Shown piece after piece: positions 29,937 through 43,604 of a stretch of 64,000 bases of DNA. The translations under genes were made by a program, and so were the position numbers. The notes under the pieces were generated by a model. The model had not been told where the DNA came from and made no database searches. It saw only the letters and a program-made list of their open reading frames with translations. How positions within the stretch are numbered: position 1 is the stretch's first letter; each line of letters begins with the position of its first letter. Origin of the DNA: Kutzneria viridogrisea (lineage in GTDB: Bacteria > Actinomycetota > Actinomycetes > Mycobacteriales > Pseudonocardiaceae). The stretch spans positions 62,001-126,000 of the forward strand of contig JACJID010000008.1 of NCBI GenBank assembly GCA_014138725.1, given 5' to 3'.

Positions 29937-29944
29937 CCCGCCGC

Positions 29945-30028
29945 GAGTCCCGCCCACAGGCCCACGAGTCCCGCCCAGGGTTCGGCGCGTCCCGCTCTCT
30001 GGCGCACGAGTCCCGCCCACCTCACTCC
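29945..30028 (+). repeat. 21-bp minisatellite, locus 2, left array
   Basis: Four units start at 29945, 29966, 29987 and 30008, each GAGTCCCG (once GCGTCCCG) plus a variable 13 bp. They read in the sense direction of the membrane protein gene ending at 29936. The opposed right array begins at 30262, beyond the structured element. Confidence 0.85.
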
Positions 30029-30043
30029 CCCACCCCGCGCCCC

Positions 30044-30246
30044 GCGTCTTCGCGCCGGTCTCTGGACCGCCGGCTCAGTTCGGCCGCGTCTTTTCAGCGG
30101 GCGAACTGAGACAAGGGAAGAGACCGGACCCAAGCGAAGACGCCGCGATCCGGAGGATCGCAGAGAGCGAAGCGGGCACAGCCACCCCCAGCCAACACCC
30201 ACGCCCGCTCGGGAGAGCCCGCATCAGTCCAGCGGGCGACCCGAGC
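30044..30246. repeat. Structured interspersed element, copy A
   Basis: Nested stems: GCGTCTTCGC (30044) with GCGAAGACGC (30134); CCGGTCTCT (30055) with AGAGACCGG (30119); CTCAGTTCG (30074) with CGAACTGAG (30102). Then a GCGATCC-GGA-GGATCGC hairpin at 30145-30161, and GCTCGGG (30207) with CCCGAGC (30240) around GCCCGC/GCGGGC. Copy B at 43037-43238 keeps the outer stems and the last double stem base for base but has different, still complementary sequences in the third stem and in the GGA-loop hairpin. It could be a structured RNA or a DNA element; no gene inside is credible. Confidence 0.85.
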
Positions 30247-30261
30247 AACAACCCACGAAAA

Positions 30262-30440
30262 CGGGACTCACCGTCCCGCGAACGGGACTCACCCACCCCA
30301 AAACGGGACTCACCCACCGGAGCGCGGGACTCGCGCTCCCCAGAGCGGGACTCGCGTGCAGGAGACCGGGACTCGCGCACCAGTAAGCGGGACTCACGCC
30401 CCCAGACCGGGACTCGCGCACTGGAGGCCGGGACTCGCGG
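30262..30440 (-). repeat. 21-bp minisatellite, locus 2, right array (inverted)
   Basis: Nine units starting CGGGACTC at 30262, 30283, 30304, 30325, 30346, 30367, 30388, 30408 and 30429. The period is 21 bp except one of 20. They are the reverse complement of the left array's core and so read GAGTCCCG in the sense direction of the minus-strand citrate synthase gene whose 3' end lies at 30543. The stretch 30441-30472 shows nothing further. Confidence 0.9.
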
Positions 30441-35298: not shown

Positions 35299-35430
35299 GT
35301 ACCGGAAGCGCAAACACACCGCACGGGAACGTCCGACACGCGGTACGCGAAGCGCCGACACGCGCTGTCCCCCGCGTGTCGGCGCTTCCGATACCGCGTG
35401 TCGGCGCTTCCGGTACGGCGTGTTTGCGCT
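35299..35430. repeat. Inverted 22-bp repeat array between convergent genes
   Basis: Three units of about 22 bp on each side face each other. The right units read GCGTGTCGGCGCTTCCG (from 35374 and 35396) and then a diverged GCGTGTTTGCGCT. The left units are their reverse complements. The centre is a perfect 16-bp stem, GAAGCGCCGACACGCG (35349-35364) with 35373-35388, around 8 nt; the outermost pairs are AGCGCAAACAC (35307) with GTGTTTGCGCT (35420). It fills the gap between the acyl-CoA dehydrogenase and amidohydrolase genes and probably terminates both. Confidence 0.85.
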
Positions 35431-42871: not shown

Positions 42872-42880
42872 CCACCCCAC

Positions 42881-42985
42881 GAGTCCCGCCCTGGGGAGCC
42901 CGAGTCCCGCCCAGCCGCACGCGAGTCCCGCCCAGCCGACGCCGAGTCCCGCCCACCGGAGCGCGAGTCCCGCCCCAGCTTCGCC
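42881..42985 (+). repeat. 21-bp minisatellite, locus 3, left array
   Basis: Five units start at 42881, 42902, 42923, 42944 and 42965, each GAGTCCCGCCC plus 10 variable bases. They are in the sense direction of the arginase-family gene that ends at 42871. Confidence 0.88.
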
Positions 42986-42998
42986 CACCCCGCGCCCC

Positions 42999-43055
42999 GC
43001 GTCTTCGCGCCGGTCCCGCGTCTTCGCGCCGGTCCCGCGTCTTCGCGCCGGTCTC
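42999..43055. repeat. 19-bp triplication of the structured element's 5' arm
   Basis: GCGTCTTCGCGCCGGTC begins at 42999, 43018 and 43037 with a 19-bp period. Only the third copy continues into the full element; copy A at 30044 has a single arm. This looks like a recent local slip-strand expansion. Confidence 0.85.
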
Positions 43056-43238
43056 TGGACCGCAGGCCGAAGATGATCACATCTGTCCAGTGATCATCTT
43101 CGGACAAGGGAAGAGACCGGACCCAAGCGAAGACGCCGCGCCCCGGAGGGGCGCCAAGAGCGAAGCGGGCACAGCATCCAGTACTGATGACCGTGCCCGC
43201 TCGGGAGAGCCCGCATCAGTCCAGCGGGCGACCCGAGC
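43037..43238. repeat. Structured interspersed element, copy B
   Basis: Same plan as copy A: GCGTCTTCGC (43037) with GCGAAGACGC (43127); CCGGTCTCT (43048) with AGAGACCGG (43112); a different third stem, CCGAAGATGATCAC (43067) with GTGATCATCTTCGG (43090), 14 bp perfect; a different GGA-loop hairpin, GCGCCCC-GGA-GGGGCGC (43138-43154); and the identical GCTCGGG (43199) and CCCGAGC (43232) double stem. Sequence between the stems, such as ACAAGGGA and AGCGAAGCGGGCACAGC, is conserved. Confidence 0.85.
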
Positions 43239-43253
43239 AACAACCCACGAAAA

Positions 43254-43604
43254 CCGGACTCACCCCAGAACGGGACTCACCCACCGGAGAGCGGGACTCG
43301 CGCCCCTGTGACCGGGACTCACGCTCCCCAGCCAGGGACTCGCCACCCCCAGAGCGGGACTCACGTGCAACAGCCCGGGACTCACGCCAGCGACCGGGAC
43401 TCACGCTCCCCAGACCGGGACTCGCGCTCCTGTGCGCGGGACTCGCCACCCCCAGAGCGGGACTCACGTGCAACAGCCCGGGACTCACGCCCCTCAGACC
43501 GGGACTCACCGTCCTGTGAACGGGACTCACGTGCAGCAGCCCGGGACTCGCCACCCCCAGAACGGGACTCACGCCCCCCAGCCCGGGACTCGCCGCCTGG
43601 AAGC
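43254..43604 (-). repeat. 21-bp minisatellite, locus 3, right array (17 units, inverted)
   Basis: Units begin CGGGACTC (first one CCGGACTC) at 43254, 43271, 43292, 43313, 43334, 43355, 43376, 43395, 43416 and then every 21 bp to 43584. Two units are shorter (17 and 19 bp). Variable parts recur in blocks; for example the pair ending CCACCCCCAGAG and CACGTGCAACAGCC appears at 43334-43375 and again at 43437-43478, which points to segmental duplication. They read GAGTCCCG in the sense direction of the minus-strand MFS gene. Confidence 0.92.

What the first reader, a model, noticed from the sequence alone, without database searches (positions are those of the whole stretch)
30044..30246. Roughly 200-nt interspersed element with covarying hairpins (copies A and B)
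Copies at 30044-30246 and 43037-43238 share nested outer stems, linkers and a terminal double stem base for base, but the third stem and the GGA-loop hairpin have unrelated sequences that are nevertheless fully complementary in each copy (9 bp CTCAGTTCG versus 14 bp CCGAAGATGATCAC; 7 bp GCGATCC versus GCGCCCC). This means structure is kept while sequence is replaced, as in a functional RNA or in DNA hairpins copied by template switching. It is flanked by opposed minisatellite arrays. I know of no named family that matches.
Basis: partly seen in the sequence, partly recalled or inferred. Interest (0 to 1): 0.85.

Follow-up and report, generated by a model that had tools for sequence, protein, structure and literature searches.

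The report
Dispersed covarying hairpin element of actinomycetes
Short DNA pieces scattered between genes of many soil actinomycetes fold into the same set of hairpins although their letters change, and at matching places in related species the outer hairpin hardly changes, so they look like an old spreading element that the host now keeps for an unknown purpose.

Summary
The window genome (a Kutzneria) has 27 blastn matches to copy A, 14 of them practically full length. A covariance model finds 18-114 copies in six of seven Kutzneria genomes. The architecture recurs in other Pseudonocardiaceae, Streptosporangiaceae and further actinomycete families, partly in tandem arrays. In 97 distinct Kutzneria copies 97.9% of 4064 pair cells pair and 707 carry double changes (shuffles 195). 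Rfam gives no match above threshold. G-U exceeds A-C 37 to 9, so the forward strand probably folds on its own. Copies hug stop codons in either orientation. The family has moved: ten orthologous spacers of the window sites, all that I read, lack it. Yet at 16 orthologous sites the outer stem differs at 0.9% of positions against 20% in the non-coding upstream flank, and 50 changed pairs are compensated against 15 one-sided. Y1 transposase and reverse transcriptase are missing from most of 16 carriers tested. Best reading: an ancient miniature mobile hairpin element, mobiliser unknown, kept in place by selection; function not shown.

The parts
30044..30181 (+). copy A, family core P1-P2-P3-P1'-P4 plus 3' tail (tail end approximate)
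   Evidence: alignment A1, model R1 and cmsearch hit G000:C8:92042-92177
30044..30053 (+). copy A P1 5' arm GCGTCTTCGC
   Evidence: pairs with 30134-30143; 9 of 10 P1 pairs show double changes in A3
30134..30143 (+). copy A P1 3' arm GCGAAGACGC
30055..30062 (+). copy A P2 5' arm CCGGTCTC; partner GAGACCGG at 30120-30127
   Evidence: 6 of 8 P2 pairs show double changes
30063..30073 (+). conserved internal loop, 5' side TGGACCGCCGG; its CC pairs with GG of CAAGGGAA at 30112-30119
   Evidence: CTGGAC and AGGGAAG invariant in the 41 copies of A2 (the pattern used to find most of them required these letters); CC/GG becomes GCC/GGC in L042 and L051
30074..30110 (+). copy A P3: arms 30074-30087 and 30097-30110, 9-nt apical loop GTCTTTTCA at 30088-30096
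   Evidence: 13 of 15 P3 pairs show double changes; fold
30145..30161 (+). copy A P4 hairpin GCGATCC-GGA-GGATCGC (GNA triloop)
   Evidence: 7 of 7 P4 pairs show double changes
30172..30246 (+). copy A 3' module matched only in the window genome; P6 30207-30213/30240-30246 and 30217-30222/30232-30237, loop ATCAGTCCA resembling the P3 loop
42999..43034 (+). two 17-nt fragments of the element's own 5' end before copy B
   Evidence: TRF 42996-43053, period 19
43037..43238 (+). copy B: P1 43037-43046/43127-43136, P4 43138-43154, P3 14 bp CCGAAGATGATCAC, 3' module as in A
   Evidence: cmsearch hit G000:C8:105035-105170

Best explanation
A family of miniature, non-coding, dispersed elements (about 115-165 nt) of Actinomycetes, derived from a mobile element without a gene of its own. 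SHOWN: one architecture (P1, P2, conserved internal loop CTGGAC..AGGGAAG, variable P3, P4 with GNA loop, A-rich tail) in thousands of pair cells with Watson-Crick covariation; presence and absence at orthologous sites; vertical inheritance at other sites with strong constraint on P1, P2, P4 and, less, the loop, while P3 and the linker change; a preference for places within tens of bases of stop codons, in either orientation. INFERRED: the forward strand is recognised as a folded single strand; this fold is needed for spreading (ends near P1 and the tail) and, after insertion, for a host-side role at gene borders. Most likely that role is as a structured segment of read-through transcripts (insulation, 3'-end formation or processing). 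The mobilising enzyme is unknown; in most carriers tested neither a Y1 (IS200/IS605-type) transposase nor a reverse transcriptase was found.
For: Covariation. Copy numbers 24, 114, 58, 44, 18, 66 in six Kutzneria genomes and 0 in the seventh, 4.7-Mb genome. Window sites A and B: 6 of 6 and 4 of 4 orthologous spacers read lack the element (no R1 match at E 1 or better). Another site (L341, 12067-12204): intact in G001, G002 and G006, a 26.6-bit remnant without P2-P3 in G003, absent in G005, G000 and G004. 16 orthologous pairs: 603 pair cells unchanged, 50 compensated, 15 one-sided, 3 other. Differences per position: P1 .009 (3 of 320), P4 .049, P2 .051, core loop .09, P3 outer .255, tail .258, linker .302, against .20 in up to 80 nt of non-coding upstream flank (151 of 747, plus 151 gap columns).25 in the 40 nt upstream and .12 in the 40 nt downstream, coding included. 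P1 identical in 14 of 16 orthologous pairs but in 154 of 993 same-genome pairs. G-U 37 against A-C 9 in A3, 16 against 0 in P2 of A2. Stop-codon proximity and no orientation preference.
Against: No mobiliser, exact ends or target duplication could be defined. Host function is inferred from constraint alone. Orthologous copies came from the better-scoring half of the hits, which favours intact copies; one site read without that bias showed 3 intact, 1 internally deleted and 3 absent. Orientation neutrality (>E> 29, <E< 34) is hard to square with a function inside sense transcripts only. G-U is rarer than in 30 tRNAs of the window genome (0.9% against 4.3%), which is unusual for an RNA. No promoter-like signal lies upstream. 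G-U and A-C cells are not independent (9 G-U cells sit at one P3 pair). Seven G005 copies score only 56-68 bits, so decayed or divergent copies exist and were not in the rate estimate. Gene context comes from my own simple gene finder.
Confidence: 0.55

Rival explanations
1. Selfish single-stranded-DNA hairpin element without host function; arms stay complementary because fold-back copying or quasi-palindrome template switching rewrites one arm from the other.
For: Double changes outnumber one-sided changes 50 to 15 between orthologues; G-U fraction is low; end-anchored partial copies follow full copies; everything inside P1 is swapped at one site (L078/L247) and a long replaces a short P3 at two (L257/L236, L264/L238).
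Against: P1 and P4 are conserved as sequence, not only as complementarity (.009 and .049 against .20 in the upstream non-coding flank), and so is the unpaired core (.09). Arm rewriting does not predict that.
Confidence: 0.2
2. Purely host-made cis element, for instance a bidirectional or U-tract-less terminator or RNA-processing hairpin at gene ends, spread by ordinary recombination.
For: Median distance 24 nt after a sense stop codon (41 of 58 within 60 nt) and 14 nt from an antisense stop codon (45 of 63 within 60 nt). At window sites A and B several sister species have other long hairpins between the same convergent genes (by eye).
Against: Copies also sit just before start codons and between rplK and rplA, where a terminator would cut off the next gene. 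No U-run follows the hairpins in A1 or A2. A tandem array of 10 copies (L191) and 114 copies in one species against 18 in another look like proliferation.
Confidence: 0.17
3. SINE-like retroposed RNA copied by a reverse transcriptase in trans; 5'-truncated copies are incomplete reverse transcripts.
For: At least 20 of 156 pattern matches examined (loci L082-L207 and L311-L340, mostly outside Kutzneria) are followed at once by a piece that starts inside the element and runs to its 3' end (table sorted by eye); G-U exceeds A-C on the forward strand.
Against: 11 of 16 carrier genomes have no RVT_1 match, among them Kutzneria with 44, 18 and 66 copies. 3'-truncated pieces also occur on the 5' side (window 42999-43034; L207, L152, L162, L199).
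Confidence: 0.06
4. One recent duplication of a chance hairpin plus an unrelated insertion.
For: None found.
Against: Hundreds of copies with covariation, in many genera.
Confidence: 0.01

Closest known systems
Yeast mitochondrial GC clusters (GC42); Allomyces double-hairpin elements
   Same: GC42: short mobile hairpin without a gene, stems more constrained than loops, units merge and shuffle, presence varies between strains (PMC4478555, passages seen). Double-hairpin elements: analogy recalled; only a reference title was seen.
   Different: Mitochondrial; GC clusters have AG or ACT direct repeats at the ends, which I did not find here. Sequences were not compared.
REP/BIME elements with RAYT (Y1) transposases
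   Same: Extragenic palindromes, many copies, cleavage of a single-stranded hairpin strand (PMC3733652 passages).
   Different: REPs are 20-40 bp with a GTAG or CGTC tag (PMC3733652, abstract in listing and passages); here about 120 nt, several helices, no tag, and Y1_Tnp missing in 12 of 16 carriers.
BOX and RUP of pneumococcus, bcr1 of Bacillus cereus, ERIC (small interspersed bacterial repeats)
   Same: About 100-200 nt structured intergenic repeats, some modular (recalled; for BOX and RUP the PMC3049150 abstract in search listings).
   Different: Other phyla; sequences were not compared directly.
MITEs
   Same: Short, non-coding, mobile; P1 arms give a 10-bp inverted repeat.
   Different: P4 and the tail lie outside the inverted repeat; no target-site duplication seen; no cognate transposase found.

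Membership tests
REP/RAYT system | Y1 (IS200/IS605-like) transposase in the genome | tested here: not met
   PF01797 found in 4 of 16 element-bearing genomes, one of them a fragment; 1 partial match in 7 Kutzneria genomes
REP/RAYT system | GTAG or CGTC tag at one end of a 20-40 bp palindrome | tested here: not met
   Consensus of A1 and A2 begins with the P1 stem and ends with a tail such as AACACAG; no tag seen
MITE of a DDE transposon | terminal inverted repeats at both ends with target-site duplication | tested here: inconclusive
   P1 arms are inverted but P4 and tail lie beyond them; flanks too diverged for an exact empty site
Known structured RNA family (Rfam 15) | match to a covariance model at gathering score | tested here: not met
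   0 matches in the window; best 13.2 bits against gathering 35.6 around copy A; only three tRNAs in 18 other loci
Reverse-transcriptase-dependent element (retron, group II, SINE-like) | reverse transcriptase in the carrier genome | tested here: not met
   RVT_1 absent in 11 of 16 carrier genomes, present in 5 (G000, G001, G002, G344, G535); a lost or very divergent enzyme is not excluded
Intrinsic terminator | GC hairpin followed by a U-run, sense orientation after genes | tested here: not met
   Tail has no U-run in A1 or A2; >E> 29, <E< 34, >E< 29, <E> 19 of 118 copies, 7 undetermined
Independent small-RNA gene | conserved promoter upstream | tested here: not met
   In 97 Kutzneria copies no base exceeds 45% in the 30 positions upstream (51% in 86 other first-in-array copies); TANNNT in at most 5 of 97 per 10-nt bin
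Integron attC or IS91/Helitron-type element | IntI or Y2/Rep enzyme and its ends | not tested
Functional RNA | transcription | not testable with these tools
   no RNA-seq available

The most novel reading that the evidence does not exclude
A new class of bacterial mobile element: a gene-less, strand-specific multi-hairpin that spreads by a mechanism using neither Y1 transposase nor reverse transcriptase, grows arrays by adding end-anchored partial copies to itself, exchanges the whole interior cassette within a fixed P1 stem at one chromosomal site, and has been domesticated at gene borders in several actinomycete families.
Probability: 0.3. Interest if true: 0.88.

Novelty: new variant of a known kind. 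Interest (0 to 1): 0.7.

Why it matters
Small dispersed bacterial repeats are usually thought of as REP-like hairpins moved by a Y1 transposase or as defective insertion sequences. Here a much larger covarying structure spans families of Actinomycetes, has no such enzyme in most carriers tested, and shows both signs of movement and strong constraint in place. It gives a ready set of natural compensatory mutants (50 compensated pair changes at 16 sites) for asking whether bacteria keep hairpins by selection or by fold-back repair. It also gives a covariance model for annotating unexplained intergenic DNA in antibiotic producers.

Tried and rejected
Rejected: Rfam membership; RAYT/REP; reverse-transcriptase dependence as a general rule; own promoter; replication-strand bias (the listed copies of four genomes, 27, 21, 15 and 21, show no excess over 1000 shuffles each); carriage by viruses, plasmids or phages (0 matches to the pattern in IMG/VR; one Streptosporangium copy by blastn in plasmids and phages, none; the Kutzneria form was not searched there). 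Within-genome homogenisation is not seen in five Kutzneria genomes: same-genome and different-genome non-orthologous pairs differ equally in P1 (.182 each). The window genome was not in that set and its copies look more uniform.

Led nowhere: exact ends and target duplication; a gene repeatedly adjacent to copies (the 25 widest protein clusters show housekeeping and other genes, no shared recombinase by eye); a gene-bearing autonomous version. One MerR/VOC-like gene lies between two inverted copies in G001, which looks like cargo.

Selections made before counts. A1: 33 of 38 extracted copies, five near-identical window-genome copies left out. A2: 41 of 54 extracted; 13 left out by me as near-duplicates or because P4 or P3 differs much. 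A3: 99 loci given; nine fetched non-duplicate Kutzneria loci were not given: seven G005 copies of 56-68 bits (L274-L280), and L283 and L285 (138 and 136 bits) by oversight (scores); window-genome copies were also not given. Of the 324 genus hits only copies in the printed lists were fetched. A first flank rate of .29 mixed columns inside and outside the element (two bases outside P1: 15 of 32 differ; columns 13-14: 0 of 19); it is replaced by the rates.

Full report
WHAT WAS CHECKED. Both fold far better than shuffles (z -5.7 and -8.5 as RNA; A as DNA -6.9).

HOW WIDESPREAD. blastn with A gives 27 matches in the window genome: 14 cover 202-203 of 203 bases, 8 cover the first 133-139 (they stop after P4 and the tail), 5 are shorter. 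Among 41 genomes by blastn only genomes of the same genus match (6 of 41). Model R1, built on 33 copies, finds 24, 114, 58, 44, 18 and 66 copies in six genomes of the genus and none in the 4.7-Mb seventh (at most 150 candidates scored per genome). It finds 18 of 200 genomes and 5 of 46 genera in the family (only 16 candidates scored per genome). The 80 listed are mostly Streptosporangium, Microtetraspora, Herbidospora, Planomonospora, Planobispora, Nonomuraea, Acrocarpospora, Microbispora, Kutzneria, Lentzea, Amycolatopsis, Saccharothrix, Actinophytocola, Rhizocola and Murinocardiopsis (their families are recalled). Seven of the 80 (Cohnella, Elusimicrobia, Roseburia, Archangium, Defluviimonas, Prauserella, a Rhodobacteraceae MAG) lack the rest of the element by eye. 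A second model, R2, over 394 genomes of the class hits 21 genomes, 13 of 138 genera and five family numbers (8 candidates scored per genome, E 1e-5). The window genus is named because contig lengths of its congeners G001, G002 and G006 equal those of Kutzneria buriramensis, Kutzneria sp. 744 and Kutzneria sp. CA-103260.

ANATOMY. From 5' to 3': P1 (10 bp); P2 (8-9 bp); an internal loop conserved across genera (CTGGAC on one side, AGGGAAG on the other; invariant in A2, but most of A2 was found by a pattern that required these letters, so the invariance is partly built in) which holds a short CC/GG or CU/GG helix; P3 (14-22 bp in the Pseudonocardiaceae copies looked at, the most variable part; in Kutzneria a 9-nt loop RTCTKTYCA; in Streptosporangiaceae a shorter stem with G.A pairs); back through P2; a 5-8 nt linker; back through P1; P4 (7 bp in Kutzneria, GNA triloop); and a tail like CAANNAACACAG. 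In many Streptosporangiaceae copies P1 or P4 carries tandem G.A pairs (CGAG/CGAG; read by eye). The window genome adds a 3' module whose hairpin loop (ATCAGTCCA) resembles the P3 loop.

COVARIATION. Kutzneria, 97 distinct copies fitted to R1: 97.9% of 4064 cells paired, 37 of 42 pairs with double changes, 707 double-change cells against 195 in shuffles, covariation score .485 against .135. In A1: 96.5% and 215 against 63. Across genera (A2, 20 pairs): 94.3% and 71 against 19. Cells of A3: 3943 Watson-Crick, 37 G-U, 9 A-C, 75 other, of which 52 are G.A or A.G; P2 of A2: G-U 16, A-C 0. Since G-U on one strand is A-C on the other, this points to the forward strand folding as a single strand; cells are not independent. 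The G-U share (37 of 3980) is below that of 30 tRNAs of the window genome (27 of 628), so wobble is tolerated but rare.

MOVEMENT. The spacers holding A and B were located in relatives by their flanking genes. All six orthologous spacers of A and all four of B that I read lack the element (R1 finds nothing there at E 1 or better). Several of them hold another long hairpin, others unrelated sequence. A site taken from G001 (L341, 12067-12204) has the element in G001, G002 and G006, a 26.6-bit remnant without P2-P3 in G003, and none in G005, G000 and G004. In the same 15 kb, two inverted copies with a MerR/VOC-like gene between them are absent from G002, G003 and G006; in G005 the site is rearranged.

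CONSTRAINT IN PLACE. Among 97 Kutzneria copies from five genomes (window genome not included) 16 pairs from different genomes are orthologous by both flanks. Of the pair cells 603 are unchanged, 50 changed on both sides to another Watson-Crick pair, 15 on one side, 3 otherwise. Differences per position: P1 .009, P4 .049, P2 .051, core loop .09, P3 inner .132, P3 outer .255, tail .258, linker .302. For comparison.20 in up to 80 nt of non-coding upstream flank (plus many gaps).25 in the 40 nt upstream and .12 in the 40 nt downstream, the last two with coding sequence included. P1 is identical in 14 of 16 orthologous pairs but in 154 of 993 same-genome pairs and 596 of 3647 other pairs. Thus copies are inherited at their sites and P1 is held. 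At L078/L247 the inside of P1 is replaced by another subfamily while P1', P4, tail and the first downstream bases stay identical; L257/L236 and L264/L238 exchange a short for a long P3. The caveat is that fetched copies were the better-scoring ones.

WHERE THEY SIT. Of 118 Kutzneria copies (21 of them from the window genome), by a simple codon-usage gene finder: <E< 34, >E> 29, >E< 29, <E> 19, undetermined 7. Median gap 24 nt after a sense stop codon and 14 nt from an antisense stop codon, but 116 nt from a divergent start and 61 nt from a sense start. No upstream promoter signal and no replication-strand bias in the listed copies of four genomes.

ARRAYS AND PIECES. Outside Kutzneria copies often stand in tandem (up to 10 in L191); the window genome also has tandem cores (G000:C2:1335065-1335541). 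At least 20 of 156 pattern matches examined are followed directly by pieces that start inside the element and end at its tail (table sorted by eye; L168 shows three in a row). 5'-end pieces precede full copies in L207, L152, L162, L199 and in window copy B.

MACHINERY. Y1_Tnp is in 4 of 16 carrier genomes, RVT_1 in 5 of 16. No match in viral contigs to the pattern, nor in plasmids or phages to one Streptosporangium copy. IS91-type and integron enzymes were not tested.

CONCLUSION. The family is real, old, mobile in origin and constrained in place. I rate a miniature mobile hairpin element now retained at gene borders as most likely (0.55). Which molecule is recognised, what moves it and what it does for the host are open. 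In kind it is closest to dispersed bacterial repeats and, by behaviour, to yeast mitochondrial GC clusters (PMC4478555, passages). It does not meet the tested defining features of REP/RAYT, Rfam families or U-tract terminators, and a reverse transcriptase is lacking in most carriers tested. Eight full-text paper searches listed no description of it among the rows shown; subscription papers are not held.

Noticed in passing
29944-30020, 30262-30439, 42880-42975, 43263-43591: 21-bp minisatellites, CGAGTCCCGC left and GCGGGACTCG right of each copy; in sister Kutzneria the same arms form one long hairpin between convergent genes (L343, L345, by eye), so the arrays look like amplified hairpin arms.
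   Followed up: partly
35305-35430: Another inverted pair of short tandem repeats (GAAGCGCCGACACACC / GTGTCGGCGCTTC), dispersed in this genome with matches at G000:C6:682321, C4:404096 and C5:617790.
   Followed up: no
L341 3187-4383 (G001:C18): A MerR-type regulator with a VOC-like C-terminal half (label recalled, not searched) lies between two inverted element copies; the whole 1.2 kb is absent at the same site in G002, G003 and G006.
   Followed up: partly
L165, L085, L193: A copy lies between genes that look like rplK and rplA in Saccharothrix and in Herbidospora (L085 is probably the same site as L165; gene names recalled from the protein sequences).
   Followed up: no
L076 and L093: Copies directly behind the stop codon of a gene that looks like ahcY in Kutzneria and in another genus of the family (gene name recalled).
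   Followed up: no
L046, L236, L238-L240, L269, L271-L273: A roughly 163-nt Kutzneria subfamily with a longer P3; in L037/L047 a P4-like hairpin sits in the P3 loop.
   Followed up: no
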